DNA of 64,000 nucleotides from Planctomycetota bacterium (GCA_030616775.1 JAUWWQ010000020.1:1-64000), one strand, 5' to 3'. Positions 47,601 through 63,433 are shown, counted from the stretch's first letter. The notes: generated by a model from the sequence alone, not told the origin. Made by a program: numbers and translations.

Positions 47601-47696
47601 CAGCTTGTCGCGTATGACGTCGAGGAGCGTGTCGCCCGCTTCGACCGCAACGCAGTGTTTGTGTCCGTTGATCGCGAGCGTGCAAGGGGTCATCAT
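44634..47696 (-). CDS. Fused [2Fe-2S] and molybdopterin subunits of a molybdenum hydroxylase (4-hydroxybenzoyl-CoA reductase-like)
   Basis: 1020 residues. Residues 1-150 are the iron-sulfur subunit: GCNVGDCGAC (Cys41, 46, 49), Cys61, then CGYC (100, 103) and CRC (135, 137). Residues 204-1000 are the molybdopterin subunit: GGGFGGKAA, AMRGHGVPQPRFAFE, GQGSDTVLTQM and GAKEIGEGS with the catalytic Glu. They are usually two genes (hcrC, hcrA). The joining linker (151-203) is encoded by palindromic repeat DNA. Operon partners are a FAD subunit and XdhC. The aromatic context suggests a CoA thioester substrate, but xanthine-type or aldehyde substrates remain possible. Confidence 0.88.
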   Translation of the reverse strand: MMTPCTLAINGHKHCVAVEAGDTLLDVIRDKLHLTGTKKGCNVGDCGACTVLIDGQPMNSCLLLAVEFEGKAITTVEGFAKSGKLAPIQKAFVHEGAIQCGYCTPGMIMSATALLNENPDPSADEIKEALAGNLCRCTGYAGILRAVQRCNNYRSDGTCAEKDRAAIGNCPDEVGSPRGATDDETASKCKEPRRLKPAAQGSKYDSVGVSIPRVDAADKVTGRALYTGDVSLPNMIHGKILGSSVAHGRIKQIDTSKAKALEGVIAVITGADVPDTMYGVSPARYDEHVLAKEKVRHVGEPVAAVAAVDEKTAEKALSLIEVDYEELPAVFDPVEALAQGAPQLHDRYERNINTHVDQDFGDVEKAFAESYRVREETFVGNHVYQSPLEPHAAIATWDHDGTLVLYSSTQVPHYVQYMMAHVLHMPLGRIRVIRPTVGGGFGGKAATSPLDLCSAILSKKTGRPVKMVYSREDMFHYGRGRHKQHMKFKLGVDRDGRIKAFDSEIYLDGGAYSSFGVATAYYAGSVVPTLYHIPNYRYNGYRVVTNKPACGAMRGHGVPQPRFAFECLLTMIADDLGIDPIEIRRRNAMTPNTITVNEMDIGSCEFLATLDAACEKSGWNEKYGKLPRGKGIGVGSGGFVSGAGYCIYRGQVQLSHEKGREPFQKRPIFPHANAIVKISEDGMAAVLLIGAAEIGQGSDTVLTQMCAESLGIPASRVRIRSEDSDISPLDLGAYSSRITLMGGHAVSRAAEDVVNKMRPYAANMLGCNEADVVARGGRMFPTRAVDDAHRAAGFSPRGPATGEQPVDESLFVLWAEVARKYFNDNGPLVGTGCYKPPEGLGGDYKGATVGTSPAYSFGTSVCELSVDLETGKVKIDRFTDYHDCGTPINPRAVHGQVEGAIVMGAGETIMEEVQFDEKGQILNPNLHGYLMMTIKDAPEIFSGIVDSYEPRGPFGAKEIGEGSTLPVLGAVAHAIANATGTWIKDLPITPEKILKAVREKQKPSAISDQPSPVSGERPVT
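45301..45328. repeat. Palindromic repeat inside the molybdenum subunit gene
   Basis: On the minus strand the sequence is GAGCCGCGGGCTTTAG, then TCCGCGCGGACC. It has nearly the same arms as the element at 47099-47126. It is translated in frame as AHRAAGFSPRGPA, a loop absent from the typical family as far as I can judge. Confidence 0.6.
47099..47187. repeat. Palindromic repeats forming the inter-subunit linker
   Basis: Two palindromes lie here: GCAGGCT-TT-AGCCTGC within 47099-47126 (GAGCCGCAGGCTTTAG, then CCTGCGCGG) and TCCCGAC-TTC-GTCGGGA at 47171-47187. Both are read through in frame on the minus strand and encode the linker between the [2Fe-2S] and Mo domains. Confidence 0.65.
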
Positions 47697-48574
47697 GCCG
47701 CGTTCTCCTGGGCGCGCCGGCAGGCGGTTGCCAGCGCCCGGCGCGTCATCACGCCAACCACCTCACGACGGAAATCGGCGGACCCCCGCACGTCGGAGAT
47801 CGGCTCGGCCGCCTCCATAGCGGCCACGGCTGCGGCGCTGAACGCCTCCTCGTCCGCACGTTTTCCGACAAGCACCGTCCGTGCAGCCTCGACCACCTTC
47901 GGTATGGGCGCTACTGCTCCGAGGACGATGCGGGCGCTGCGCACGGTGTTGTCGCGTCCGAGGGTCAGGCCGGCGGCGACTGCTGCCACTGCGATGGCAT
48001 TCCCGTCGCGTAGCGCGAACCTGGCGTAAGCGGCGCCGAACCCCGGTGGAGGTTTCGGCACCAGGACCCTGGTCAGCACCTCGTCATCGCGCAGAACCGT
48101 TTGACGGGCATCCACGAAGAACGCCTCGAGCGGCACGCTGCGCTCTCCCTTGGGCGACCAAAGCGCCACGGATGCGTGCATCGCCGTCAAAATGGGGGGC
48201 AGGTCAGCGCACGGAACTGCACATGCTATGTTGCCCCCGACCGTGGCGACGTTGCGAATCTGGGGTGCCGCCATCTTGCCGGTTGCGTCGAGGATCGGCG
48301 AGAACCTCTCGCGAACAATCGACGAGCAGCCTAGCTGCGTGATCGTCGTAAGCGCGCCGATGCGCAAGCTGCCGTCGGTCTCCGATACTCCACGTAGGGC
48401 GTCGATTCGGTTCACGGAGACTAAGTGGCCGACGCTGACCCTGCCGGCCTTCAGGTCGACGAGTAGATCCGTCCCGCCGGCGAGCAAACGGGCGTCCGGA
48501 GCGTACCGCGACTTTGCGGCTGCCGCTTCTTCAAGCGTCGTGGCTTCGTGGAGCTCGATGTCTGGCAAGTGCAC
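47693..48574 (-). CDS. FAD-binding subunit of a molybdenum hydroxylase (CoxM/HcrB-like)
   Basis: 293 residues of the FAD-PCMH/CO dehydrogenase medium-subunit family. DARLLAGGTDLLVDLKAGRV is the first FAD loop; RNVATVGGNIACAVPCADLP is the second; the CO-dehydrogenase C-terminal domain follows. I chose the GTG at 48574 because AGGAG lies seven bases before it; a TTG at 48610 would add 12 residues. The stop overlaps the next start (ATGA). True HcrB carries an extra loop with four cysteines for a [4Fe-4S] cluster; I see no such loop here, so the electron path may differ. Confidence 0.88.
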   Translation of the reverse strand: MHLPDIELHEATTLEEAAAAKSRYAPDARLLAGGTDLLVDLKAGRVSVGHLVSVNRIDALRGVSETDGSLRIGALTTITQLGCSSIVRERFSPILDATGKMAAPQIRNVATVGGNIACAVPCADLPPILTAMHASVALWSPKGERSVPLEAFFVDARQTVLRDDEVLTRVLVPKPPPGFGAAYARFALRDGNAIAVAAVAAGLTLGRDNTVRSARIVLGAVAPIPKVVEAARTVLVGKRADEEAFSAAAVAAMEAAEPISDVRGSADFRREVVGVMTRRALATACRRAQENAA

Positions 48575-48656
48575 GCTGCCACTCCTGACTACGTGTCGGA
48601 CCTGGGCCAAGAGACCCAGCGACCGCAGGCTCTATGCGTACGTGGTCCCATGGGCG

Positions 48657-49449: not shown

Positions 49450-49613
49450 CGGTGCCTTACCGTGCGCGGCAGAAGCGGCACCAAAAGTATGCGTCCGCGT
49501 ATGTGCCACGGTAATGACCGTATGTACGTACGTTCGGTTTTTTCGGCCGCGTTGAACGCGTCGTCTCGCGTGCCAAGCGGTGCGCTCTCTGGATCTAGTT
49601 GGAGAAGCCGGTC

Positions 49614-50735
49614 ATGAGTCTGTTTCCCGCCCGTAATGCCGAGTCGTTTGATTTCAAGGAGGTCCAATACGAGAAGCGTGATTGGGTTGCCCGGGTCACG
49701 ATAAATCGACCTCATAACTACAACGCATACAGCACCCCTGCGCTCCAAGAGCTCGCAACGGCGTTCGAGGACGCTTCCTGGGACGACAGCGTCGCTGTTG
49801 TGGTGTTTACCGGGACCGGTGATCGCGCCTTTTGCACCGGCGGCGACGTGAAGGAGTACCAGGAGAGTTACACTCAAAAGCCCCGCGACTACTGGAAGTA
49901 CATGTGCTGCTTCAAGGGCTACATCGAGTCGATGGTCAACTGCGCCAAGCCGGTGATCGCCCGCCTCAACGGGATGGCTGTCGGCGGAGGCAATGAAAGC
50001 CAACTGGCTTGCGACCTGGGGGTCATGGGTGAGCATGCGTTTATCGCCCAGGTGGGGACCGGTGTCGGATCCGTGGCCTGCGGCGGATCGACACAATGGC
50101 TCCCGCTGCACGTCGGGGATCGCAAGGCCCGGGGTATCCTGTTCCTCAACCAGCGATACCCGGCTTATACCTCGCTGGCCATGGGGTTGGTGAATGTCGT
50201 CGCGCCGACAGTCAAGGGGCCCGACGGCAAGTTCGTGACCCGCTTTAGGACGGGTCGCAAGTATCTGGCCGACTGGAATACCGACCCGTGGGATGATCCT
50301 TTCGACAATCGCGTGACACCGCAGGAGATCGGTAAGGCCCAGAAAGGCAAGGACGGCTACTCGATCGATCTATCGCTGCTTGACGACGTAGTGGCGGATC
50401 TGTGTGATCAGGTGGTCAACAAATTCTTCGAGTGCACCCGCTACACCAAAGCCCAGGTGAACTTCTGGAAGGAATTGTCCTGGCACGCGACCGCCGGCCA
50501 CGCTCGGGATTGGCTTTCCACTCACTATACGAGTCTGGAACCGCATGAAGGCATGACCGCTTTTGTCGAAAAGCGGAAGGTGGATTTTGTGGGGATGCGT
50601 CGTCGTGCAGCCGACCCGAGCGGTTCCAGTGAATTCTTGTGGGGTCCCTATGCCAAGAGCTGCCCGAAGTGCGAGGCCAAGGGCATCCCCGCCTTTTTCG
50701 AGTATTGCGGCAAGTGTGGCGCCAAGTTGGGCTAA
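49614..50735 (+). CDS. oah: 6-oxocyclohex-1-ene-1-carbonyl-CoA hydrolase
   Basis: 373 residues of the crotonase fold, the size of Oah/BamA. KEVQYEKRDWVARVTINRPH, AFCTGGDVKEYQESY, NGMAVGGGNE and GTGVGSVACGGSTQWLPL are characteristic. A zinc-ribbon-like end (CPKCEAK, YCGKCGAK) is also a trait of this enzyme. It adds two waters to the ring ketone and cleaves it to 3-hydroxypimeloyl-CoA, the ring-opening step of anaerobic benzoate degradation. The ATG at 49614 follows GGAG; a TTG at 49599 is less likely. First gene of the plus-strand cluster. Confidence 0.95.
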   Translation: MSLFPARNAESFDFKEVQYEKRDWVARVTINRPHNYNAYSTPALQELATAFEDASWDDSVAVVVFTGTGDRAFCTGGDVKEYQESYTQKPRDYWKYMCCFKGYIESMVNCAKPVIARLNGMAVGGGNESQLACDLGVMGEHAFIAQVGTGVGSVACGGSTQWLPLHVGDRKARGILFLNQRYPAYTSLAMGLVNVVAPTVKGPDGKFVTRFRTGRKYLADWNTDPWDDPFDNRVTPQEIGKAQKGKDGYSIDLSLLDDVVADLCDQVVNKFFECTRYTKAQVNFWKELSWHATAGHARDWLSTHYTSLEPHEGMTAFVEKRKVDFVGMRRRAADPSGSSEFLWGPYAKSCPKCEAKGIPAFFEYCGKCGAKLG

Positions 50736-50762: not shown

Positions 50763-51506
50763 ATGACACTAGAAAATAAGAAGGCGATTGTCACAGGCGG
50801 CAGCTTGGGAATTGGAGCTGCGATTGCCCGGGAACTGGCCCGGCAGGGCGCCAACGTGGCGATCAACTATCGGAAGCACGACACCGAGGCGAAACAAGTG
50901 GTCGCGGACATAGAGGGCATGGGTCGCAAGGGTCTGGCGATCAAGGCGGACGTGGCCAGCTTCGCCGATGCCGAGCGCATGGTGGCCGAGGTGAAAGAGA
51001 CCTTTGGCGGGCTCGACATTCTGGTCAACAATGCCGGGATTAACCGGGACAGCGTCATCTGGAAGATGACCGAAGAGCAGTGGGATCAGGTAATCGACAT
51101 CAACCTGAAAGGCTATTTCAACTACATCCGCGCCGCCGTAGGCGTTCTTAGAGAGCAGAAATCCGGCAAGATCGTCAACGTCACGTCGATCAACGGACTT
51201 CGAGGAAAATTCGGACAAACCAACTACTCGGCGTCGAAGGCCGGTATCATCGGATTGACGAAAGCATTGGCCCGCGAGTTGGGTCGGTCGAGCGTCAACG
51301 TCAATGCGGTGGCTCCCGGCCTGATAGAAACTGACATGATGAAAGACGCCCCTCAGAATGTGCTCGATGCAGCCCTTGCGGAAATCGTTCTGGGCCGGAT
51401 GGGCCAGCCTGAAGAGGTGGCATCGGTGGTGGCGTTCTTGTGCAGTGAAGCCGCCAGGCACATCACCGGTGAGGTCATCCAGGTTGACGGCGGACAGTAT
51501 ATTTAG
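50763..51506 (+). CDS. Short-chain dehydrogenase (3-oxoacyl-ACP/acetoacetyl-CoA reductase type)
   Basis: 247 residues. Cofactor motif AIVTGGSLGIGAAIA, structural NNAG, catalytic Ser (VTSINGLRG), Tyr and Lys (NYSASKAG), C-terminal GEVIQVDGG. FabG/PhaB-like enzymes reduce or oxidise 3-oxoacyl thioesters with NADP(H). In this cluster it may act on 3-oxo/3-hydroxy intermediates after ring opening. GCAGGAG stands upstream. It lies 27 bases after oah. Confidence 0.9.
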   Translation: MTLENKKAIVTGGSLGIGAAIARELARQGANVAINYRKHDTEAKQVVADIEGMGRKGLAIKADVASFADAERMVAEVKETFGGLDILVNNAGINRDSVIWKMTEEQWDQVIDINLKGYFNYIRAAVGVLREQKSGKIVNVTSINGLRGKFGQTNYSASKAGIIGLTKALARELGRSSVNVNAVAPGLIETDMMKDAPQNVLDAALAEIVLGRMGQPEEVASVVAFLCSEAARHITGEVIQVDGGQYI

Positions 51507-51611: not shown

Positions 51612-52802
51612 ATGAACCTGAATGACATAGTTGCGATCAGTGCGGTACGGACGCCGATGGGTCGTTTCGGCGGGACGCTTAAGGATATCGCCTCGTACGA
51701 TCTCGGGGCGGTAGCGATCCGGGCGGCGCTGGAAAGGGCCAAGGTGGCAGGTGACGGTATTGACGATGTGATCTTCGGAAGCTGTCGCCAGGCGGGCAAT
51801 GGGCCGAATCCGGCTCGGACGGCTGCGGTCCGTGCCGGGATTCCCGTCAGTGTTCCAGTCCAGACAATTAATATGGCTTGCCCTTCGGGAATGCGCTGTA
51901 TCGCGCTGGCGTCACAGGCCATCCGGCTCGGCGATTACAAAACCGCCGTCGTGGGCGGAATGGACAGCATGAGCACGATTCCTTATCTGCTCAAAGACTG
52001 TCGCTGGAGCGGCTTCAAGATGGGAGATCGTACCCTTCTGGATGGCTGGGCGGACAGTATCGACCCGCTGTGTGGCGTGGGTATGGGAGCCACCGCAGAG
52101 AATCTTGTCGACAAATACAAGATTTCGCGTCAGGCCCAAGACCAGTTTGCCGTGGAGAGCCATCAGAAGGCCGCGAAGGCGCGGGCGGATGGATGGTTTG
52201 ACGAAGAGATTATTCCGGTCGAGGTGCCGGCCGTGGGCAGACAACCGGCTGTTGTGTTTGACAAGGATGAAACGATACGCGCGGATACCTCACTGGAGAA
52301 AATGGCCAAGCTCAAGCCAGCGTTCAAGAAGGATGGGACGGTCACAGCCGCCAATGCATGCGGCATGTCCGACGGAGCGTCGGCGCTTGTTCTGACCTCG
52401 CGCGAACATGCCAGGTCGTTGGGAGCGACACCGCTGTTCTCGCTGGTGGTGTACTCCAATGTGGCAGTCGACCCGGTCACTATGGGTGAGGGGCCTGGTG
52501 TCTCTATCCCTGCGGCACTTACGCTGGCGGGAATGACTCTCGACCAGATGGACTTGATCGAGGTGAACGAAGCCTTTGCGGTCCAGGTACTGGCCAACCA
52601 GCGCGTGCTGAAGTGGGATCCCGACAGGCTCAACGTTCACGGCGGGGCGATTGCTCTGGGCCATCCGACGGGGATCAGCGGGGCGCGCATCGTGGTCACC
52701 CTCTATTACGCTCTGAAACGGACCGGCGGCGAACTGGGCATCGCCGGCATCTGCGGCGGCGGCGGCGTGAGCATGGCTCTGGTCATCAAGCGGGAGGACT
52801 AG
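51612..52802 (+). CDS. Acetyl-CoA acetyltransferase (thiolase)
   Basis: 396 residues. The acylated cysteine is in NMACPSGMRCIALA, the His in GAIALGHPTGISGARI, and the second Cys in GICGGGGVSMA. VNEAFAVQVLANQ is also conserved. It cleaves 3-oxoacyl-CoA with CoA in beta-oxidation, here probably the glutaryl/acetyl-CoA-forming steps after 3-oxopimeloyl-CoA, or condenses acetyl-CoA. A second thiolase is encoded at 58247. AAAGGAAT precedes the ATG. Confidence 0.93.
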   Translation: MNLNDIVAISAVRTPMGRFGGTLKDIASYDLGAVAIRAALERAKVAGDGIDDVIFGSCRQAGNGPNPARTAAVRAGIPVSVPVQTINMACPSGMRCIALASQAIRLGDYKTAVVGGMDSMSTIPYLLKDCRWSGFKMGDRTLLDGWADSIDPLCGVGMGATAENLVDKYKISRQAQDQFAVESHQKAAKARADGWFDEEIIPVEVPAVGRQPAVVFDKDETIRADTSLEKMAKLKPAFKKDGTVTAANACGMSDGASALVLTSREHARSLGATPLFSLVVYSNVAVDPVTMGEGPGVSIPAALTLAGMTLDQMDLIEVNEAFAVQVLANQRVLKWDPDRLNVHGGAIALGHPTGISGARIVVTLYYALKRTGGELGIAGICGGGGVSMALVIKRED

Positions 52803-52807
52803 CGACG

Positions 52808-53578
52808 ATGGGCGATTACCAATTCCTGGAACTGAACGTAGCAGAGGGTATCGCAACGGTCACGCTGAATAGACCGCCGCTCAACATCCTGAATATCCGG
52901 ATGATGGCGGAGCTTAATACTTTGCTGGAAGCGGTCCTCGGTGATGGTGACCTTGCGGCTATAGTGCTTCGGGCCAATGGCAAGGCCTTCAGCACCGGCG
53001 TCGATGTGAGCGATCACACGGCTGAGAAGGTCGGCGAGATGATCGGGCAGTTTCACGGTATCTTCAGGAAGCTTGCGTCGACCGACTCGCTAACTATTGC
53101 CGCGGTCAGCGGAGCGGCTTTGGGTGGGGGATGTGAACTGGCCACCTTCTGTGACATTGTGTTGGCGTCTGATCGGGCCAAGTTCGGCCAGCCCGAGGTG
53201 CAAGTCGGGGTCCTTCCGCCGGTGGCGGCGTGTGTCTTCCCGCCGCAGATTGGGCTCAAGAAGGCGATCGAGCTTAATGCGATCGGCAGGACCATTGACG
53301 CTCACGAGGCGCACCGAATCGGTCTGGTCAATCAGGTCTATCCAACGGAAGAGTTTGACTCCTCAGTCGAGGCGTATCTTGCACAGATCCGGAAGCTCTC
53401 GCGCCCTGTGGTGCGGATGGCCAAACGGGCGACGACCATGGTAGCAAGAGAGCAGGTCCTTTCGCACTTGGAACGAGTCGAGCGATTGTACCTTGATGAG
53501 TTGATGAAGCTTTCGGACTCCTACGAGGGTCTCGCAGCGTTTATGGAGAAACGACCACCCAAGTGGCAGCACAAATAG
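52808..53578 (+). CDS. dch: Cyclohexa-1,5-diene-1-carbonyl-CoA hydratase
   Basis: 256 residues of the crotonase fold, as usual for Dch/BamR. The oxyanion-hole and family segments are LNRPPLNILNIRMMAELN, KAFSTGVDVSDHTAEKVGEM and VSGAALGGGCELATFCDIVL. It adds water to the diene formed by benzoyl-CoA reductase, giving 6-hydroxycyclohex-1-ene-1-carbonyl-CoA. The order with oah and had is that of the benzoyl-CoA pathway. The ATG at 52808 is five bases after the thiolase stop; a longer frame from 52613 is a shadow. Confidence 0.92.
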   Translation: MGDYQFLELNVAEGIATVTLNRPPLNILNIRMMAELNTLLEAVLGDGDLAAIVLRANGKAFSTGVDVSDHTAEKVGEMIGQFHGIFRKLASTDSLTIAAVSGAALGGGCELATFCDIVLASDRAKFGQPEVQVGVLPPVAACVFPPQIGLKKAIELNAIGRTIDAHEAHRIGLVNQVYPTEEFDSSVEAYLAQIRKLSRPVVRMAKRATTMVAREQVLSHLERVERLYLDELMKLSDSYEGLAAFMEKRPPKWQHK

Positions 53579-53788: not shown

Positions 53789-54814
53789 ATGAAAGCAGCG
53801 GTGTTCCACGGTAGTGACAAGGGATTGAAGATCGAGGATATCCCGGTTCCGCAGGTCGGTGACGGTGAGGTTCTGGTCAAGGTGGCGGCTTGTGGTGTGT
53901 GTCATACCGACCTGCACTACCTTGAACACGGGGTGCCGACGTTCAAGAAGCCTCCAGTGGTGTTAGGGCATGAGGCCTCAGGCATGGTGGAACAGGTCGG
54001 GGCCAACGTGACCAATGTCAGCAAGGGGCAGCGGGTATTGATCCCGGCGGTTTTAACCTGTGGTTACTGCTCCGCCTGTCGGCAAGGGCGTGAGAACATC
54101 TGCAGCAACATGAGAATGGTGGGCAATCATTTTGACGGTGCCTATGCCGAGTACGTGGCAGTTCCGGCCAAGGACCTGTTGGATCTGCCGGAGTCCATCC
54201 CGTTGGAAGAGGCGTCCATAATCGCCGACGCGATTTCCACACCGTATCACGCCGTGAAGAACCGGGCCCAGGTGAAACCGGGTGATACGGTGGTGATATT
54301 CGGATGCGGCGGCGTGGGCATCAATGCCGTGCAACTGGCGTCGGTGGCCGGGGGATACGTGATTGCCGTGGACATCAACCCCCGCAAGCTTGACTGGGCG
54401 TCCGAGTTCGGGGCCGCCAGGACCATTGACGCGACAAAAGTCGATCGGGTTAGTAAGGAGATCAAGAAACTGACCGGTGGCGGGGCCGACATCGCCATGG
54501 AGGTCATCGGGAATCCTCGGACGATTGAAGAAGCGTTCGAGTGCGTTCGCGTGGGCGGGCGGTTATGCGTTGTGGGTTACACGCATGAGGCGATCTCGAT
54601 TGTAGCCGGCAAGATCATGTTCAAGGAAATCGAGGTGGTCGGCTCGCTGGGCTGCCGCCCGGTCGACTATATGCCGCTGATTCGGATGGTGGAACAGGGC
54701 AAGATCGACCTGAAGCGACAGGTGACCCATCGCTTCAGCCTGGACGAGATCAAAAAGGCCTTCGAGGTAATGAAAGAGGGCCTGTCGTTGCGCTCAATCG
54801 TGATCCCGCAGTAA
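53789..54814 (+). CDS. had: 6-hydroxycyclohex-1-ene-1-carbonyl-CoA dehydrogenase (zinc alcohol dehydrogenase)
   Basis: 341 residues of the zinc MDR family. The catalytic zinc site begins CGVCHTD, HE is in LGHEASG, and the structural zinc cysteines lie in CGYCSACRQGRENIC. NAD site VVIFGCGGVGINAVQLA. The family alone does not fix the substrate, but its place right after dch, with oah and bcr genes in the same cluster, makes Had/BamQ the likely role: oxidation of the ring alcohol to the ketone used by Oah. AAAGGATCGAGCA lies before the ATG. Confidence 0.88.
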   Translation: MKAAVFHGSDKGLKIEDIPVPQVGDGEVLVKVAACGVCHTDLHYLEHGVPTFKKPPVVLGHEASGMVEQVGANVTNVSKGQRVLIPAVLTCGYCSACRQGRENICSNMRMVGNHFDGAYAEYVAVPAKDLLDLPESIPLEEASIIADAISTPYHAVKNRAQVKPGDTVVIFGCGGVGINAVQLASVAGGYVIAVDINPRKLDWASEFGAARTIDATKVDRVSKEIKKLTGGGADIAMEVIGNPRTIEEAFECVRVGGRLCVVGYTHEAISIVAGKIMFKEIEVVGSLGCRPVDYMPLIRMVEQGKIDLKRQVTHRFSLDEIKKAFEVMKEGLSLRSIVIPQ

Positions 54815-54837: not shown

Positions 54838-57800
54838 ATGTTGCATGAAGGTCAACTTGGAGTTCATCCGCCCGGTGCGCTAAGTGTGGCGTTCTTCATT
54901 CACGCCGGTGCGGAGTGCTTCATCGGCCGGGGCGGCGACGGAATCACACAACCGCTCAAGGAGATCGGTGCACTTAACCTCGACGACCAGCGCAGGCTCC
55001 GCTCGATTCCTCTGCGGGGCCGCATCTTCGCAAACCTTCTGGAAGCCGACGCCCTCGACCACATGCCGGAACTTCTGCTGGTTTGCTGCAACCCTGATCA
55101 GCTCGGTTTGTTCACCAAGGAGCTGACCCGATTCCTGGAGAATCTGGCAGAACGCCAGCGGCTGTGCTCCAAGGACGACATCCACCGGGAAGTGCCGATC
55201 CTGTTGATCCTGCCCAACGGCGTCCTGTCGGAGCAGATCGTTCGCACCTACGACGAGCAGTTGCACGAGTCAATGCTGATGCAACGCCTTCCCGGGCTCA
55301 CCGATGAAATGCGGCAAGCCCTGCTCGAAAGAGTGGTACGGGGGGTCTCCCTCCAGGCCGGTGGCCGGCGCGGTAGCGGAGCCGATACGGTCTTCATCCT
55401 CGAACGGAAAGGATCACTGGTTTTCGCAGGAGGCGGGGACTTCGAGCGTCAGCGGGTAGAAGACATTCTTTCCGCTCATGATTATCCGTTCACGCACGCC
55501 CGCGGCGTGCCGGGCACCCGGATCGAGTTCGATAAGGCCATGATCTCCATCGTGCTCAACGTGGGCGGCTTGATCCATACTGTCAAACCGGACGGCGAGC
55601 TGATCGATTTGCGCATGGGTGACCTGTGCAGAGACCCCTCGAAAGCGGAGTTTGTGGGTAGAGTCACACATGCGTTGTTCACAGTCGGCCGGGCCGTCGG
55701 TGCGTATCCCACCAATGCCAAGTACGAGGACATTTGGGCCACACACCGAGCGACGATCATGGCCCACGCCGGGCACGTCACCAGTTCGCTGATGACGTTC
55801 CGCGATGCACTGGGCAGCGGACTTTATAGCGTCGAGCTCTTTTCTAATGAGGAATGGATCCTAACGCCGCTGAGTCGCTATGCAGCCAACGCCGGGTTGA
55901 AGGAAGAAGAAGCGCTGTTCAACTCACTCAAACGCCAGGTGCAAGAGTCGATGGCCAAGGCAATCCACCATCGGGACCGGCAGTCCTGTGGCGGAAAAAT
56001 GAGGACCAGCAAAATGAAACTCACCGGACAACGCACCTTCAGTATCGAGCTTTACGAAAGCGGCTCTGATGAGATGGCACTGGTCGGCACGGTACTTGAT
56101 AACGACCACCTGATCAAGCTCGAACTCGATCTCAACCTCCCGGACGAGCAGATTACACGCTGTAAGCTCGATATGGTCCGCGTGCCATTCCCGGTGTGCC
56201 GGGGAATCGAGCCCATGGTAGACCGCCTGGTCGGGCTGCGGATCGAGCGAGGCGTGATCAATGAGATTGCACAGCGGATAGGCGGTCATCTGGGATGTTC
56301 GCACGTCAAGGAACTGGCTGCCAACATGGTATATTTTGCGGCCTCGAGCCTGGTGCAACATCGGCTGGGCGTGGACCCCACAAGTACCGAGTATGAAACC
56401 AAGCCGCCCGAAGAGCGGTTTACGATGACCAAGGAGCTTTTGAGCGATTCATGTCTTGCATATTGTCAGGCAACGGCTTGGAGGCTCGACGAGCAGATCG
56501 GAATTAGGAAGGTCGGTGAAGAGCACACTAATCCTTTGCCTCTGGGAGATTACGAGCCATCCTTCGGAGCGTTGCTAAGAGACCGAGCCCAACGATGGGG
56601 TGAGAAGGTCTATCTTCGTTATCGCATCGACAACCGTGAATTTGCTGTCACCTGGAAGGAGTTCGCCGGGAAGACGTTTCAAATCGCCCGCCATCTGCTT
56701 GACCAGGGAATCCGCAACGGGGATCGAATCGGCATGATCTCGGAGAACCGCGCCGAAATGTACATGTTTGAAATGGCCACCATGTCGATCGGCGCAGTCA
56801 CAGTACCGATCTTCGCCGGGTACCGGCCACAGCAGGTCGCCTACGTATTGGACAGCGCCCGGCCACGGTATGTGGTGGTCTCCGGCAAACACCAGCTCGA
56901 CAAGATCGAGCGCGATAAGCATCCCTGGGTTGAGAAGATCTATTGCATGGATTTCAACGATGCCTGCCGGAGCTGGGGTGCCGTCAACTTCGCCACGCTT
57001 ATCGCCGATGGCGGGGTTTCGGAGCAACGCCTGTGGGATCACATAGATTCCGTCAAACCGGAGGATCTCTGCCTTGTCATGTACACCTCCGGCACCACGG
57101 GCGCGCCTAAAGGGGTGCGCCTGGGCCACCGACACCTGATCTCTCAGCAAAGAGCCATGTCGCTCATGTGGGACGTGAACCAGAACGATGTGTATATGAA
57201 CTACCTGCCGTGGCATCACAGCTTCGGTGGGTTGTTCGAGCGATTCATGACTCTCTACAACGGATGTGAACTGTGCCTCGACGACTCGCGCGGGAAGGAT
57301 ATCGACCGGCTGATCGAGAACTGGAAGGCCTTTAATCCCACGACCTTCTTCAGCGTCCCACGGGTCCATGATTTGCTTATAAGCAGATGCCAACAGAGTC
57401 GCAGTGTTGCAGACGTCGTCTGGGGTGGTCGATTGCGCTTTGTCCTAAGTGCCGGTGCCCCGTTGCCGGCTCATGTGGAAGCCGCTTATCGCGAGCGCGG
57501 CATCCCCGTGCTCGAGGCCTGGGGGCTGACCGAGACATCGCCGTGTGTCACCGCCACAACCATGGATAGTGGATGGAAGAGCGGGTACGTGGGCGTTCCA
57601 CTGCCCGGGGTATCGGTTCGCATCGACAGTGAGCAGGAAATCCTGGTGAAAGGCCCCAACGTCATGGAGGGCTATCTCAACGACGAGGAGGGCACTGCAC
57701 ACGTCATCACGGAGGATGGTTGGTTCCACACCGGCGACCTCGGCGAGTTCACCAAGGACGGGCTGCGCGTCTTTGGTCGAAAAGATGGGACTTTCAAACT

Positions 57801-58257
57801 CACCACCGGTGAGAAGGTGCATCCGCTACGTGTCGAAACGGTGCTGGTCAACGAGTCGTCGTATGTCAGCCAGGCCGTGGTATTGGGGAGCGGCAAGGAC
57901 TACGTCGGGGCGCTGATCTACCCGGATGTCCGCAATCTCCAGTTCTGGGCGGCCAACCACGACGTGGCTGCCGGTGACGTCCTCAGCCATCCTGCCGTGC
58001 ATGAACTGTATGCATCGGAGCTCAAACGGATCAATCCGCTGATCGAGATCAAATACCAGCGCCTGACGCGAGCGGTGTTGGCCGACCGTGAACCCTCTCT
58101 GGACAGCGGCGAGTTGACCCCCTCGGGGAAGCTCGTCCGCAAGGTGGTGATGAAGAACTTCAAGAACAAGATCGACGCGTTGTTTGCACCGGAGACCCCG
58201 GGAGAGGTCATCGAGGTGCAACAAGCATCGCAAAGGACGGTTACCAATGAAGCGTGA
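54838..58257 (+). CDS. Three-part protein: unknown domain + DUF2889 + acyl-CoA synthetase
   Basis: 1139 residues. Residues 1-375 are not recognised; ALSVAFFIHAGAECFIGRGG and VPILLILPNGVLSEQ recall a nucleotide-binding dehydrogenase, uncertainly. Residues about 395-515 match DUF2889 (RTFSIELYESGSDEMALVGT; CRGIEPMVDRLVGLRI). Residues about 565-1120 are an AMP-binding ligase: P-loop VMYTSGTTGAPKGVRLGH, NYLPWHHSFGG, EAWGLTETSP, WFHTGDLGE and GRKDGTFKLTTGEKV. The ligase part is closer to long-chain fatty acyl-CoA ligases than to benzoate-CoA ligases. It lies in the middle of the benzoyl-CoA cluster, 24 bases after had. Confidence 0.88.
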   Translation: MLHEGQLGVHPPGALSVAFFIHAGAECFIGRGGDGITQPLKEIGALNLDDQRRLRSIPLRGRIFANLLEADALDHMPELLLVCCNPDQLGLFTKELTRFLENLAERQRLCSKDDIHREVPILLILPNGVLSEQIVRTYDEQLHESMLMQRLPGLTDEMRQALLERVVRGVSLQAGGRRGSGADTVFILERKGSLVFAGGGDFERQRVEDILSAHDYPFTHARGVPGTRIEFDKAMISIVLNVGGLIHTVKPDGELIDLRMGDLCRDPSKAEFVGRVTHALFTVGRAVGAYPTNAKYEDIWATHRATIMAHAGHVTSSLMTFRDALGSGLYSVELFSNEEWILTPLSRYAANAGLKEEEALFNSLKRQVQESMAKAIHHRDRQSCGGKMRTSKMKLTGQRTFSIELYESGSDEMALVGTVLDNDHLIKLELDLNLPDEQITRCKLDMVRVPFPVCRGIEPMVDRLVGLRIERGVINEIAQRIGGHLGCSHVKELAANMVYFAASSLVQHRLGVDPTSTEYETKPPEERFTMTKELLSDSCLAYCQATAWRLDEQIGIRKVGEEHTNPLPLGDYEPSFGALLRDRAQRWGEKVYLRYRIDNREFAVTWKEFAGKTFQIARHLLDQGIRNGDRIGMISENRAEMYMFEMATMSIGAVTVPIFAGYRPQQVAYVLDSARPRYVVVSGKHQLDKIERDKHPWVEKIYCMDFNDACRSWGAVNFATLIADGGVSEQRLWDHIDSVKPEDLCLVMYTSGTTGAPKGVRLGHRHLISQQRAMSLMWDVNQNDVYMNYLPWHHSFGGLFERFMTLYNGCELCLDDSRGKDIDRLIENWKAFNPTTFFSVPRVHDLLISRCQQSRSVADVVWGGRLRFVLSAGAPLPAHVEAAYRERGIPVLEAWGLTETSPCVTATTMDSGWKSGYVGVPLPGVSVRIDSEQEILVKGPNVMEGYLNDEEGTAHVITEDGWFHTGDLGEFTKDGLRVFGRKDGTFKLTTGEKVHPLRVETVLVNESSYVSQAVVLGSGKDYVGALIYPDVRNLQFWAANHDVAAGDVLSHPAVHELYASELKRINPLIEIKYQRLTRAVLADREPSLDSGELTPSGKLVRKVVMKNFKNKIDALFAPETPGEVIEVQQASQRTVTNEA

Positions 58258-59497
58258 CGAATTCCCGCACGTGGTCATTGCCGGAGCGGCCCGCACACCT
58301 GTGGGGCTCAAGTGCGGCACCCTCAGCAACTTTTCAGCGGAGGATCTGGGCGTCTTGGCCGCCGAAGAAGCGATCCGCCGCAGCGGCGTGGGGCGCGAGA
58401 AAATCGACGCCGCCATTGGTGCCAACGTTTATCAATACACCGCACCGGGCTGCCAGGACATCTACTTCCCGCGCAACGTGGCTTTGCGTTGCCACCTCAA
58501 TACCGAGACCCCGGGGCTAATGGTGCAACGGATTTGCGGTTCCGGGCTGCAGACCGTAATCAACGCATTCCAGCAGATTGCCTTGCCGGATGTCGTCGAT
58601 GACACCAAGATCGCCCTCTGTGTCGGCGCGGAGACTATGTCGCGCGTTCCGCAAGTCATACGGGCGCCACGGCGATCGGCGCCGAGCTTCTGGGAGTTCG
58701 TTGAGGACGGCGACGTTGAGGACATGATGCTGGCCGGACTCAATCACGATCTCGCCGAAACGGCCATGATGATTACCGCCGACGAGTACGGAACGCAAAT
58801 GGGCGTTACCCGCCAGGATTGCGACGAGTTCGCCAGCTTGTCACACAGCCGTGCCCGGGCGGCATACCGCAGCAGCCACTTCAACGGCGGCGACGCACTG
58901 CGAGGCATTTTTGCCATCGACGCAACGGACCTTACCGGCAACCCGGTGCATTTGGCCCGTGATGAATGCGTGCGCCAGACCTCGCCGGACGTGCTTGCCA
59001 AGCTTCCGGGCTTCACGCCCAACGGTCTGGTCTCTCCAGGCAACGCCAGCGAGATCAGTGACGGTGCGGCGGCGCTGGTGGTCGCCGGTCGGGCGGAAGC
59101 CGAAAAGCAGGATCTGCCGACGCGGTATGAGGTTGCCAGCTATGGTGTTGCCGGCGTTGAGCCGCGGGTCATGGGGCGCGGACCGGTCCCGTCCGTCAAA
59201 CAGGCACTGTCCCGGGCCGGTCTTGAGCAGAATGACATTGGCCTTTGGGAGATTAACGAAGCCTTCGCCGCTCAATACCTGGGCGTTGAGAAGGAGCTGA
59301 ACCTGGACCGTGAGATTACAAACGTCAACGGTGGCGCCGTGGCAATCGGCCATCCACTAGCGGCGACTGGAGGACGCCTGCTCACCGATCTTATATACGA
59401 AATGGAGCGGCGCGATGTGCATTACGGGTGTGCATCGGCGTGCATCGGCGGTGGTCAGGGCGTGGCAGTAATCGTACGTGATATGGAAAAGACGTAA
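58247..59497 (+). CDS. Thiolase family acyltransferase
   Basis: 416 residues. The active-site cysteine is in [45 protein letters not shown] and the C-terminal [10 protein letters not shown] are also conserved. It should cleave 3-oxoacyl-CoA, probably 3-oxopimeloyl-CoA, to glutaryl-CoA and acetyl-CoA. The ATG at 58247 overlaps the preceding stop by 11 bases, so the two genes are coupled. Confidence 0.93.
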
Positions 59498-59643: not shown

Positions 59644-62154
59644 ATGAGAAGAGCATTTTCATTCGGTGATAGAACGATCGAGCCGGCTGTCAGGCGAGTC
59701 AATGAGGTTCGCTGTGTGGCTATCATTGGGGCGGGCACAATGGGGCAGGGCATCGCCATCGATCTGCTGCAGAAGACCGATTACGACATCATTCTTTTGG
59801 ACGTGCAGGCTGAAGCTCTGAAGCGAGCCGAGGCCAAGCTGACTTCCCTCTGGCAACAACAGGTCAAGCGCACGCAGATCCGTGATGAAGATGCCAAGGC
59901 CCTAAAGGCCCGCGTAAAGTATACCCAGAAGTACGATGATCTTACCGGCGCCGATATCATCTGGGAGGTGGCCACGGAACGTAGTGAGATAAAGGCCAAG
60001 ATCTTTGAAAACATCGAGAAGACTGCCGACCCGGAGCATCTGGCCGCGGTCTTCTCCAACACCTCCTCACACACGACCGGGGAACTCGCCGTACTGTTTC
60101 GATCGGAGGCATTCCGTGAGAAGTTTCTCACGGTGCACGGTTACTTCCCGTTCGAAGCCAATCGTCTCATCGATGTGATGAAAGGCAAATATGCGTCGAG
60201 TGAGACCTTCGCATTGGGGGTGGTTTTCGCCGATCAGATCCTCGAAAAGACGGTCATTGCCCTGCCCGTCGACCATCACGGCTACATTACCGACCCCATC
60301 TTCCAGGCCATGGCAGCGATCATCTCCTGGGATATTGAGACCGGTCAAGATATTGTGCAGTTTGGGGGATTGTGGGAATTATTCACTGCCAATCCCTTCT
60401 CAGTGCTGGATCAGACCGGGCACATGCCCTATACCGAGTCGTCGCGGCACTTGGGGGAGGCGCTTCCGGCCGACGACCGCCTGCGCAGCCTGTATAAGCG
60501 CGACGGCAAGTATTACCCTGACTGGATCGCCAAACTGGAGAAAGAGGGATCCACCGGTGTCAACTCTCCGTCAGGCAGGGGGTTTTATACCTGGAGCGAG
60601 GGTGGCCGTCCCAAGCCTCAGGCCGTAATCGATCCCGCCAGTGGAGAGTATGTGTCGATCGGGGAAATCTCCCGCAAGGATTTCTGGTCCTGCTATGAAG
60701 CTACCGAGCGCGATCGGCGGGCCGGAAAGATCAAGAGCGTTGAATCATTAGTCCACGTCGCCTGTGCGGACGACGCCGGCGGCCGGGCCTTCCGGCGGTA
60801 TGCCCTTCCGATCTGTCTTTACGCCCTCGACATGATACAGGATCGGGTCGCCACCCCGGGGCAGATCAACATGTGCACGCGGGCGGGGTTACGCTACAAG
60901 GCCGGGCTGATTGAGCTCATTGATGCTTTGATCGCACACTTGACCATCGACGGGGTGATTGAATTGATTCGTCGAGCTCGGGATGAAAACGCCGACGATC
61001 CCTATATGCTCGAGATGCTCGACGTAGACGGCAAGGCTGGACCGCGAAAGGGTCGGCCGTGTCTCCTGCATGAGATGAAAAAGCGGAACTTCAGTCGCCT
61101 TTTGGGATATGGCAAGTATTATCACAATCCAGTCGCCGAACTGGACCTGAATTCGGGCAAATACAAAGGCTGCTATCTCGACTTGAAGTTCTATGAACCC
61201 TCCTCACGCGACCGCGTGGTAAGCATCGTGTTTGACAGTCCACTTCGTGGCAACGTGTGGAATCGGGCTGCCATTGATCAGCTCGCTCATGCTTACAACC
61301 GGATTCTGCAGCTTCACCGTGAGGGGCGCTGTGGGGGCGTGCTGTTTAGTGCGGCTGGTGCAGGCATGCGGATGCTGGGTGCAGATGCCCGCGAGTTCAA
61401 CCGCGGCTGGTTCGAGCGCGAAAAGGGGTATGTTCCTCTTAATGAGGCGGAGGCGGCGGGCTTTACACGCAACGGCATGGAGCTGTTCCGCATGATTCAA
61501 CAAAGCCCCGTGGCCACAGTCGGGGTCTTCGGTGAGAAATGGGGTGGCGGTGCCGAGTTCTCCTACTTCCTCGACCTTCGCTACGACGTGCGAGCGGAGG
61601 GTTTCGTCTTCGACTCGCTCGAACGCAAGACCAACTGGCAGCAGAAGAACACCTATAATCAACCCGAGCTTGACTACGCTATTCTCGGCGGCTTCGGGGC
61701 GGCCGGAGAACTGAAAAGACTCGGCATGGGTGATTCGATCATATTCGAGGTCTTTGACCAGGGAATGACTGCCGACCGCGCCTACCAAGTGGGATTGAGC
61801 AATGCTGTATTCGAGGACGAGCTGGAGGCCCTTCGCCGGGGCTACGAACGGGCTCGTCTTATGGCCAAAGACGCTCCGTACTCCAGAGCGCTATTCAAGA
61901 AGCAGCTTTCTCGTGGAACTGACGATGAGGCCCTGGCCAAGGAAACCGGCGAAGTCTTCAATCCCAAGAAGAATCCCTTCGTCAGCACGGGTCTGCTCGG
62001 TCTTCTGGACCGAGGGGCCCGGGCTCCGAAGATGAATTACACATGCACAGGCACCGAACTTCCGGGATGGAGCTATCCAACGGAAGACGGCATGTTGGAT
62101 GTGGATGCAGCCGAGGAACCGGGCCCTGAGCGGACGGCTCACGGAGGCCATTGA
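59644..62154 (+). CDS. 3-hydroxyacyl-CoA dehydrogenase / enoyl-CoA hydratase fusion
   Basis: 836 residues. The NAD domain starts at VAIIGAGTMGQGIAIDLL (GxGxxG at 29-34), with SNTSSHTTGELA, VHGYFPFEANRLIDVMKGK and VDHHGYITDP of the dehydrogenase. The C-terminal domain begins with GRGFYTWSEGG. From about residue 510 a crotonase-like domain follows (VVSIVFDSPLRGNVWNRAAI, GVFGEKWGGGAEFSYFLDLR). It should act on 3-hydroxypimeloyl-CoA and shorter acyl-CoAs in beta-oxidation. The order dehydrogenase-then-hydratase is the reverse of FadB. Product and substrate are inferred from context. Confidence 0.88.
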   Translation: MRRAFSFGDRTIEPAVRRVNEVRCVAIIGAGTMGQGIAIDLLQKTDYDIILLDVQAEALKRAEAKLTSLWQQQVKRTQIRDEDAKALKARVKYTQKYDDLTGADIIWEVATERSEIKAKIFENIEKTADPEHLAAVFSNTSSHTTGELAVLFRSEAFREKFLTVHGYFPFEANRLIDVMKGKYASSETFALGVVFADQILEKTVIALPVDHHGYITDPIFQAMAAIISWDIETGQDIVQFGGLWELFTANPFSVLDQTGHMPYTESSRHLGEALPADDRLRSLYKRDGKYYPDWIAKLEKEGSTGVNSPSGRGFYTWSEGGRPKPQAVIDPASGEYVSIGEISRKDFWSCYEATERDRRAGKIKSVESLVHVACADDAGGRAFRRYALPICLYALDMIQDRVATPGQINMCTRAGLRYKAGLIELIDALIAHLTIDGVIELIRRARDENADDPYMLEMLDVDGKAGPRKGRPCLLHEMKKRNFSRLLGYGKYYHNPVAELDLNSGKYKGCYLDLKFYEPSSRDRVVSIVFDSPLRGNVWNRAAIDQLAHAYNRILQLHREGRCGGVLFSAAGAGMRMLGADAREFNRGWFEREKGYVPLNEAEAAGFTRNGMELFRMIQQSPVATVGVFGEKWGGGAEFSYFLDLRYDVRAEGFVFDSLERKTNWQQKNTYNQPELDYAILGGFGAAGELKRLGMGDSIIFEVFDQGMTADRAYQVGLSNAVFEDELEALRRGYERARLMAKDAPYSRALFKKQLSRGTDDEALAKETGEVFNPKKNPFVSTGLLGLLDRGARAPKMNYTCTGTELPGWSYPTEDGMLDVDAAEEPGPERTAHGGH

Positions 62155-62278
62155 GTTGACTTCCAGCCGACGCTCATCGTACACCTGCCATGGCTGTGGG
62201 TTTTATGGCAATCAACTGTCGGGTGAGGGTCCAAGCCCGTGTCCGACATCGGACTCAAAAGGTATGGGAGACGCGACT

Positions 62279-63433
62279 ATGGCAAGCCAGGCCGTGCTTG
62301 ACCAAGAAACATTTGAAACCTTCCGCAACTGGCGGTTGAACCGCGCCCAATATGCCAAGGAGTGGAAGCAGCGAACCGGGGGCAGGGTCATGGGGTACTT
62401 TTGTACCTACGCCCCTGAAGAACTCATGTATGCAGCCGGTATCCTACCTGTCCGCATTCTAGGTAGTCACGAGGTTCAGGACGTGACCGAGCCCCACATC
62501 TTTGCGATGTTCTGTCCGTTCTGCCGAGACTGCCTGGCTCAGGGACTTAAGGGGCGCTTTGATTACCTGGATGGCATCATGATCGCTCAATCCTGCCTGC
62601 ATATCCGGCAGACGTTCACCAGTTGGCAAAAACACATCCCGATCGACTACAGCTATTACCTGCCAATGCCTCATCACGTTCAGAGCCGGCGTGCCACTCC
62701 GTTCCTGACCAAGGAGCTGGAGGTGTTCAAGGACTCGCTCGAGAAGTGGCTCGGAAAGACAATCGACGAGCGGGCTATTGACGACGCCATCGAGGTGTAC
62801 AACCGGAACCGCCGGTTGTTGTGGAGAGTTTATGAGCTGCGCAAGGGCGACCGTCCTCCGCTGACCGGCGAAGAGGCGATGGAAGTAGTGCTTTCATCAC
62901 AGATGGTGGATAAGCAGGATCACAATGCCGCGCTTGAAGGTCTGTTGGCTCAGCTGTCGAAGCGCGAGCCGGCGCGCCCTACTGGAACCCGCCTGATGAT
63001 CTTGGGCAGTGAAAATGACGATATGGAGTTTATCCGGATGGTCGAATCTTTCGATGCCACCTTCGTCATTGACGATCACTGCACGGGCACACGTTATTTC
63101 TGGAACGATGTGGAACTCGATGGAAACCGACTGCATAACATAGCCGATCGGTACGTCAAACGCGTTCCCTGTCCAACAAAGGACTGGCCGGAGCGCACCC
63201 GGGTGCGGCACGTGCTCGAGTTGGCCGAGGCATACGGGGTACAGGGTGCGATCGTCATTCAGCAGAAGTTCTGCGATCCCCATGAACTCGATATCCCGGC
63301 TTTGACCAGGGCCCTGAACAATGCAGGAATCAAGACCTTGTTTCTGGAGTTCGACGTGACCGTGCCCATCGGCCAGTTCAAGGTCCGGGTTGAGGCCTTC
63401 CTCGAGATGCTTCAAGAGGATGATCTTTTCTGA
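62279..63433 (+). CDS. bcrC: Benzoyl-CoA reductase subunit C
   Basis: 384 residues, the size of BcrC/BadD. GRVMGYFCTYAPEELMYAAG, FCPFCRDCLAQGL and IMIAQSCLHIRQTF contain the cluster cysteines, and the second half has ENDDMEFIRMVESF, DDHCTGTRYFW and IQQKFCDPHELDI. With subunit B it holds the active site that reduces benzoyl-CoA to the 1,5-diene, driven by an ATP-using electron activator. GGGAG stands before the ATG at 62279. In frame upstream lies a zinc-ribbon-like stretch (YTCHGCGFYGN, PSPCPT) from a possible TTG at 62156, so a longer form is possible. Confidence 0.92.
   Translation: MASQAVLDQETFETFRNWRLNRAQYAKEWKQRTGGRVMGYFCTYAPEELMYAAGILPVRILGSHEVQDVTEPHIFAMFCPFCRDCLAQGLKGRFDYLDGIMIAQSCLHIRQTFTSWQKHIPIDYSYYLPMPHHVQSRRATPFLTKELEVFKDSLEKWLGKTIDERAIDDAIEVYNRNRRLLWRVYELRKGDRPPLTGEEAMEVVLSSQMVDKQDHNAALEGLLAQLSKREPARPTGTRLMILGSENDDMEFIRMVESFDATFVIDDHCTGTRYFWNDVELDGNRLHNIADRYVKRVPCPTKDWPERTRVRHVLELAEAYGVQGAIVIQQKFCDPHELDIPALTRALNNAGIKTLFLEFDVTVPIGQFKVRVEAFLEMLQEDDLF

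What the first reader, a model, noticed from the sequence alone, without database searches (positions are those of the whole stretch)
54838..58257. Giant three-domain acyl-CoA synthetase with DUF2889
An unknown 375-residue domain, DUF2889 and an acyl-CoA ligase are joined in one chain inside a benzoyl-CoA cluster. I know of no such architecture. DUF2889 has no defined role; the fusion ties it to CoA-thioester formation, perhaps as a substrate-binding or regulatory part.
Basis: partly seen in the sequence, partly recalled or inferred. Interest (0 to 1): 0.75.

Follow-up and report, generated by a model that had tools for sequence, protein, structure and literature searches.

The report
Three-domain CoA ligase in benzoyl-CoA operon
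Certain sediment and groundwater Planctomycetota that appear able to break aromatic rings without oxygen carry one 1139-residue protein joining a dehydrogenase-like domain, an uncharacterised probable metal-binding domain (DUF2889) and a CoA ligase; it is a conserved part of their benzoyl-CoA operon and probably the enzyme that attaches coenzyme A to the incoming aromatic acid.

Summary
In detail: ORF 54838-58257 (1139 aa) is one chain with DUF2889 and a complete acyl-CoA ligase. The "unknown 375-residue domain" is now identified: its predicted structure is that of ketopantoate reductase / D-mandelate dehydrogenase (Foldseek E 1e-12, probability 1.00). The catalytic Lys, Asn, Ser and Glu are retained, but the first Gly of the NAD(P) motif is Pro. 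The window is a Phycisphaerae (Planctomycetota) genome. The architecture is not unique: it occurs in 30 of 100 related genomes and in about 45 named loci, essentially all Planctomycetota, always in the same operon. It co-occurs with the ring-opening hydrolase gene in 29 genomes. In most lineages it directly follows a 2-hydroxyacyl-CoA-dehydratase-like gene and its activase. DUF2889 keeps D, H, C, C, H, C in all members aligned, including proteobacterial ones that often lie among acyl-CoA genes. Best reading: a dedicated aryl-CoA ligase, possibly for (hydroxy)benzoate or a phenylpropanoid, with a reductase-like and a probable metal-binding domain attached. The ligase step is well supported by motifs; substrate and roles of the two N-terminal domains are inferred. 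I found no published description.

The parts
54838..58257 (+). fusion gene: KPR-like domain - DUF2889 - acyl-CoA ligase, 1139 aa
54838..55992 (+). residues 1-385: ketopantoate-reductase/D-mandelate-dehydrogenase-fold domain; N127, K233, N241, S317 and E338 correspond to KPR N98, K176, N184, S244, E256; first Gly of GxGxxG is Pro11
   Evidence: AlphaFold model pLDDT 89, Foldseek, weak profile alignment fixing K233 register, conservation
56014..56517 (+). residues 393-560: DUF2889 domain; invariant D421, H424, C454, C487, H489, C539
56578..57678 (+). AMP-binding (adenylation) domain, residues 581-947
57790..58188 (+). AMP-binding_C_3 domain, residues 985-1117, with A10-type Lys1098
49599..50735 (+). 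6-oxocyclohex-1-ene-1-carbonyl-CoA hydrolase-like gene (OAH), co-occurring with the fusion
50763..51506 (+). SDR-family 3-oxoacyl reductase-like gene
51612..52802 (+). thiolase 1
52805..53578 (+). cyclohexa-1,5-dienecarbonyl-CoA hydratase-like gene (DCH)
53789..54814 (+). 6-hydroxycyclohex-1-ene-1-carbonyl-CoA dehydrogenase-like gene (HAD)
58247..59497 (+). thiolase 2, start overlaps the end of the fusion gene
59644..62154 (+). 3-hydroxyacyl-CoA dehydrogenase / enoyl-CoA hydratase-like 836-aa protein
62099..63433 (+). bzdN, benzoyl-CoA reductase subunit (bzdO, bzdP/Q follow beyond the window in L050)
40184..40954 (-). acyl-CoA dehydratase activase; its homologue lies directly upstream of the fusion in most lineages
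41089..42348 (-). 2-hydroxyacyl-CoA dehydratase / BCR-B-like subunit (HGD-D family, closest to HadB)
44634..48610 (-). molybdenum hydroxylase (gamma-alpha fusion plus FAD subunit) resembling 4-hydroxybenzoyl-CoA reductase

Best explanation
The protein is the dedicated entry CoA ligase of a planctomycetal anaerobic aromatic pathway. The C-terminal half adenylates an aromatic acid (most likely 4-hydroxybenzoate or benzoate, or a phenylpropanoid precursor) and transfers it to CoA. The product feeds the 4-hydroxybenzoyl-CoA-reductase-like and benzoyl-CoA-reductase enzymes encoded next to it. The N-terminal ketopantoate-reductase-like domain binds a nucleotide (NAD(P)(H), or CoA as in archaeal KPR) and either carries out a redox step on the substrate or senses the cofactor state. 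DUF2889 supplies a probable metal site between them. Shown: architecture, KPR fold by prediction, retained catalytic residues, intact ligase motifs, operon conservation. Inferred: aromatic substrate, nucleotide binding, metal binding, and any functional coupling of the domains.
For: Ligase: YTSGTTGxPKG, WGLTE, GD967, R981KDG and K1098 are invariant or nearly so in 24 homologues. It is the only AMP-binding gene on its contig, among six in the genome. Canonical benzoate-CoA ligase (TIGR02262) is above cut-off in only 4 of 60 relatives and not in this genome. Pathway link: fusion and OAH genes agree in 29 genomes (fusion in 30, OAH in 31 of 100; Fisher p about 1e-21; relatedness and linkage inflate this). 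Synteny with DCH, HAD, OAH, thiolase and BCR genes is conserved, and the 4-HBCR-like molybdenum enzyme stands in the same place in about 27 loci. KPR-like domain. DUF2889.
Against: The ligase domain does not reach the benzoate-CoA ligase family; its best NCBIfam match is the subfamily NF009232 at 269 bits against a cut-off of 777, followed by long-chain FadD families, so the substrate cannot be read from sequence. The four genomes that do have a canonical benzoate-CoA ligase also keep the fusion, so its substrate may be something else. Pro in place of the first Gly and loss of the KPR K72 equivalent leave nucleotide binding uncertain. The DUF2889 model matched no solved fold.
Confidence: 0.5

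Rival explanations
1. Bifunctional 2-oxoacid reductase and CoA ligase: the KPR-like domain reduces an aryl 2-oxoacid (phenylpyruvate, 4-hydroxyphenylpyruvate, phenylglyoxylate) to the 2-hydroxyacid, the ligase makes the 2-hydroxyacyl-CoA, and the neighbouring dehydratase-like HGD-D protein with its activase turns it into an enoyl-CoA (cinnamoyl- or coumaroyl-CoA). The hydratase, dehydrogenase and thiolase genes then shorten this to (4-hydroxy)benzoyl-CoA.
For: The top fold matches include D-mandelate dehydrogenase with an aryl 2-oxoacid analogue. In about 29 loci an HGD-D subunit plus activase lies directly upstream and overlaps the fusion; that subunit is closest to HadB, 2-hydroxyisocaproyl-CoA dehydratase (206 bits versus 150 for BCR-B). 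A 4-hydroxybenzoyl-CoA-reductase-like enzyme is encoded alongside.
Against: All fold matches have about 15% identity, so specificity cannot be inferred. Pro11 breaks GxGxxG, and Ser237 replaces the Asn180 equivalent in all fused proteins but in none of the standalone ones. Known 2-hydroxyacyl-CoA dehydratases have two different D-type subunits; here one stands next to the fusion. The HadB score is far below its cut-off (750).
Confidence: 0.15
2. The KPR-like domain is a non-catalytic nucleotide or CoA sensor that regulates the ligase, as CoA inhibits archaeal ketopantoate reductase.
For: Degenerate dinucleotide motif with the fold kept. T. kodakarensis KPR is inhibited by CoA (PMC6650551), and a KPR-CoA complex is among the fold matches (5ayv). 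Standalone homologues are paired with a tandem ACT-domain (regulatory-type) gene in 10 loci.
Against: The Lys, Asn, Ser and Glu of the KPR active site are invariant in fused and standalone proteins, which a pure sensor would not need.
Confidence: 0.2
3. The ligase acts on a fatty acid or alicyclic (cyclohexane-type) acid or on a ring-cleavage product, not on an aromatic acid; the fusion salvages intermediates of the pathway.
For: C-terminal domain of the AMP-binding_C_3 type and FadD-type profile scores; canonical benzoate-CoA ligases coexist with the fusion in four genomes.
Against: Most fusion-bearing genomes, this one included, have no recognisable benzoate-CoA ligase, yet need one if free aromatic acids are used; strict linkage to the aromatic operon.
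Confidence: 0.15

Closest known systems
Acyl-CoA synthetases of the adenylate-forming (ANL) superfamily, AMP-binding_C_3 subgroup (NF009232, FadD11/FadD-type, carboxylic acid reductase adenylation domain)
   Same: Complete two-domain ligase with all catalytic motifs; domain order adenylation then C-terminal lid
   Different: About 560 extra N-terminal residues with two further domains; far below the cut-off of every equivalog family
Ketopantoate reductase (PanE/ApbA) and D-mandelate dehydrogenase
   Same: Predicted fold over the full length; catalytic Lys, Asn, Ser and Glu at corresponding places
   Different: About 15% identity, first Gly of GxGxxG replaced by Pro, K72 equivalent lost, N180 equivalent replaced by Ser in the fused form, longer (about 385 aa); not recognised by Pfam or NCBIfam cut-offs
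DUF2889 (PF11136)
   Same: Above the Pfam cut-off; shares R, D, H, P, C, G, G, C, H, C with proteobacterial members
   Different: Lacks the roughly 19-residue insert between the D421 and H424 equivalents seen in proteobacteria; fused, whereas the proteobacterial genes seen here are standalone
Benzoate-CoA ligase BadA/BzdA/BclA (TIGR02262)
   Same: Probable pathway position: activation at the entry to benzoyl-CoA
   Different: Different ligase subfamily, two additional domains, not recognised by the family model
bzd-type benzoyl-CoA degradation cluster of Azoarcus
   Same: bzdN, bzdO, bzdQ and the DCH, HAD and OAH steps
   Different: Gene content: KPR-DUF2889-ligase fusion, 836-aa HCDH/ECH protein, extra HGD-D plus activase pair and linked 4-HBCR-like enzyme; planctomycetal host

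Membership tests
ANL acyl-CoA synthetase | P-loop, A5, A7, A8 motifs and C-terminal catalytic Lys | tested here: met
   conserved in 24 homologues; Pfam PF00501 and PF23562 over cut-off
Benzoate-CoA ligase (TIGR02262) | score above the curated family cut-off (375 bits) | tested here: not met
   best match in the window's genome is another protein (C65) at 247 bits; no hit in the genome above cut-off
Benzoate-CoA ligase (TIGR02262) | activity on benzoate | not testable with these tools
   needs assay
Ketopantoate reductase (PanE/ApbA) | fold: Rossmann domain plus all-helical C-terminal domain | tested here: met
   Foldseek E 1e-12 to 1e-8 for some 45 PanE/D-ManDH chains, on a predicted model
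Ketopantoate reductase (PanE/ApbA) | catalytic Lys176, Glu256, Asn98, Asn184, Ser244 (E. coli numbering, from general knowledge) | tested here: met
   K233, E338, N127, N241, S317 invariant in 32 sequences; register supported at K233 by a weak profile alignment, E 0.037; the other equivalences are by motif and predicted secondary structure, not by superposition
Ketopantoate reductase (PanE/ApbA) | GxGxxG dinucleotide motif | tested here: not met
   PxGxxG in the other 31 sequences, PxGxxS in the window
Ketopantoate reductase (PanE/ApbA) | sequence family cut-off (PF02558, PF08546, TIGR00745) | tested here: not met
   no hit for the window domain; best sub-threshold hits among relatives E 0.0075 and 0.0057
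DUF2889 (PF11136) | Pfam gathering score | tested here: met
   51.4 bits against 25; all 34 fused relatives match
NifU/IscU-like scaffold (considered for DUF2889) | profile similarity to NifU_N | tested here: inconclusive
   hhalign E 0.062 over 22 columns only; no fold match

The most novel reading that the evidence does not exclude
A bifunctional enzyme that reduces an aromatic 2-oxoacid and ligates the resulting 2-hydroxyacid to CoA, handing it to an adjacent 2-hydroxyacyl-CoA dehydratase: a route from phenylalanine, tyrosine or related keto acids through cinnamoyl-/coumaroyl-CoA into benzoyl-CoA ring reduction, in Planctomycetota, with DUF2889 as a new metal-binding acyl-CoA domain.
Probability: 0.12. 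Interest if true: 0.75.

Novelty: new variant of a known kind. Interest (0 to 1): 0.5.

Why it matters
It gives a fold to a 385-residue domain that Pfam and NCBIfam miss, with standalone relatives in Cyanobacteria and Verrucomicrobia, so a new ketopantoate-reductase-like family can be defined and tested. It ties DUF2889 to CoA-thioester metabolism by fusion and by gene neighbourhood and nominates six invariant residues as a metal site. It marks a conserved anaerobic aromatic-degradation operon in uncultured Planctomycetota, where the activation enzyme appears different from the known benzoate-CoA ligases.

Tried and rejected
Frameshift or assembly fusion: rejected by full-length homologues from independent MAGs. 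Uniqueness of the architecture: rejected. Sequence-only identification of the N-terminal domain: Pfam, NCBIfam and PDB sequence searches gave nothing significant; only the fold search worked. DUF2889 as an IscU/NifU-like scaffold: suggested by strand pattern and Cys/His positions, but profile comparison (E 0.062) and fold search gave no support; left open. Substitute for missing PanE: this genome has no ApbA_C protein, but relatives without the fusion lack it as well, and the domain tracks the aromatic operon, so rejected as unlikely. Ligase substrate from the nearest solved structure: scores of malonyl-, oxalyl-, luciferase-, feruloyl- and coumarate-type enzymes are too close to discriminate. 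Alignments A5 and A6 used some wrong-strand or wrong-family loci and were discarded in favour. Literature: two papers mention DUF2889; the one I read assigns a possible fold only and states no function, the other I did not open. No paper found on this architecture or on 4-hydroxybenzoyl-CoA reductase in Phycisphaerae.

Full report
WHAT IS THERE. The ORF at 54838-58257 (+) encodes 1139 residues without interruption. Pfam finds DUF2889 at 424-498, AMP-binding at 581-947 and AMP-binding_C_3 at 985-1117, all above cut-off, and nothing in residues 1-389. The gene starts 23 bases after the upstream gene, behind GGAGG, and its stop overlaps the next gene's ATG by 11 bases, so it is part of an operon.

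THE OPERON. Upstream lie genes whose best NCBIfam matches are 6-oxocyclohex-1-ene-1-carbonyl-CoA hydrolase (OAH), a 3-oxoacyl reductase-type SDR, a thiolase, an enoyl-CoA hydratase with cyclohexa-1,5-dienecarbonyl-CoA hydratase as second-best match (DCH) and 6-hydroxycyclohex-1-ene-1-carbonyl-CoA dehydrogenase (HAD). Downstream come a second thiolase, an 836-aa 3-hydroxyacyl-CoA dehydrogenase/enoyl-CoA hydratase-like protein and bzdN; bzdO, a second activase and bzdQ follow in the rest of the contig. bzdN, bzdO and bzdQ exceed their curated cut-offs; OAH, DCH and HAD are the best-fitting names but fall below theirs. On the other strand, at 44.6-48.6 kb, is a molybdenum hydroxylase whose best match is 4-hydroxybenzoyl-CoA reductase alpha (873 bits, cut-off 995) with a fused gamma part, and at 40.2-42.3 kb an HGD-D subunit with an activase.

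HOW COMMON IT IS. Among 100 genomes (the window's own and relatives) 30 carry the N-terminal domain, and in nearly every case read out in full it heads the same three-domain chain (the exception is a MAG with two interrupted copies). The OAH gene is in 31, and 29 genomes have both (Fisher p about 1e-21, inflated by relatedness and linkage). A scan of 84,980 species genomes gave about 45 fused loci, titled Planctomycetota, Phycisphaerae, Phycisphaerales or Planctomycetaceae with one labelled Vicinamibacteraceae (isolate PLA1, likely a planctomycete: its operon resembles that of planctomycete isolate PLA5, L080), and about 17 loci with a standalone homologue of about 385 residues in Cyanobacteria, Verrucomicrobia and unclassified MAGs. 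The scan depends on two conserved peptides, so distant forms can be missed. In a wider draw of 392 Planctomycetota only five genomes had the domain, two of them standalone.

THE N-TERMINAL DOMAIN. AlphaFold2 on 32 sequences gives a confident model (mean pLDDT 89, pTM 0.87). Foldseek against the PDB returns D-mandelate dehydrogenases and ketopantoate reductases almost exclusively (best E 1.4e-12, probability 1.00, alignment over the whole length, about 15% identity). A weak profile alignment (E 0.037) puts K233 on the KPR catalytic Lys, and the K233/S237/N241 spacing equals K176/N180/N184. N127-G128, S317 and E338 fall where KPR has N98, S244 and E256, judged by motif and predicted secondary structure (KPR numbering from general knowledge). 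All but S237 are invariant in 18 fused and 14 standalone sequences; standalone proteins have N at 237, fused ones S. The first Gly of GxGxxG is Pro in all 32. It is thus KPR-like in fold and active-site make-up but is not a member of PanE by sequence models or by the dinucleotide motif. Standalone relatives are preceded by a tandem ACT-domain gene in 10 loci.

DUF2889. Aligned with proteobacterial members and one planctomycetal standalone protein, R399, D421, H424, P450, C454, G466, G472, C487, H489 and C539 are invariant in 26 of 26. This is the pattern of a metal site; no metal has been shown. The model (pLDDT 76) resembles no solved structure convincingly. Plasmid-borne DUF2889 genes lie among CoA-transferase, acyl-CoA dehydrogenase, enoyl-CoA hydratase, MaoC and AMP-binding genes in 8 of the 11 annotated neighbourhoods examined (exceptions). 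Two of the eight are near-identical Variovorax plasmids, and two of the exceptions are near-identical Burkholderia ones.

THE LIGASE. The adenylate-forming motifs and the late Lys1098 are conserved throughout. The family models do not name a substrate. It is the only AMP-binding gene on the contig and one of six in the genome. True benzoate-CoA ligases are found in only 4 of 60 relatives, all of which also have the fusion. Hence in most of these organisms the fusion is the best candidate for aromatic acid activation, while in four it may have another aryl substrate.

NEIGHBOUR THAT MAY MATTER. In about 29 loci an HGD-D protein and an activase precede the fusion directly, the activase overlapping it. 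The HGD-D protein is closer to the 2-hydroxyisocaproyl-CoA dehydratase subunit HadB than to BCR subunit B. With a KPR/D-mandelate-dehydrogenase-like domain next to a ligase, this suggests a 2-oxoacid, 2-hydroxyacid, 2-hydroxyacyl-CoA, enoyl-CoA sequence. I give this 0.12-0.15 because it rests on fold and neighbourhood alone.

VERDICT. Real, conserved, undescribed in the literature I could search; a new domain architecture of a known enzyme kind. Ligase activity is likely; an aromatic substrate is somewhat more likely than not; the function of the two N-terminal domains is open and testable.

Noticed in passing
L066:17233-20556 compared with window 62099-63433 and L050:5457-8600: At the same place in the operon most lineages carry divergent bcr-like ring-reductase subunits (best matches BCR-C 264 and BCR-B 224 bits, both below cut-off), whereas the window's lineage carries bzd-type N, O, Q: an apparent in-place replacement of the benzoyl-CoA reductase type.
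   Followed up: partly
window 44634-48610 (-): Molybdenum hydroxylase with the gamma (2Fe-2S) part fused to the alpha subunit, 4-hydroxybenzoyl-CoA-reductase-like, linked to the operon in about 27 loci.
   Followed up: partly
L022:11579-13152 and L096-L107: Standalone KPR-like proteins of Cyanobacteria and Verrucomicrobia follow a tandem ACT-domain gene, a possible enzyme/regulator pair of unknown function.
   Followed up: partly
window 50650-50735 (+): The OAH-like protein ends in a CPKC...CGKC zinc-ribbon-like tail (sub-threshold Pfam DZR match, E 0.0086).
   Followed up: no
window 59644-62154 (+): 836-aa protein with an N-terminal 3-hydroxyacyl-CoA dehydrogenase and a distant enoyl-CoA-hydratase-like C-terminal part, far below all FadB/FadJ cut-offs.
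   Followed up: no
L089 and L090 (JASMMN010000024.1): Two copies of the operon lie in opposite orientation at the two ends of one contig with identical gene coordinates; probably a palindromic assembly artefact.
   Followed up: no
L026, L027, L092, L094 (G026, bin470): Two interrupted copies of the fusion gene (707-aa and 946-aa frames) in a single-contig MAG, probably sequencing frameshifts.
   Followed up: no
L120:1013-1468 (-): Standalone 151-aa DUF2889 protein in another planctomycete, not near acyl-CoA genes, sharing all the invariant residues.
   Followed up: partly
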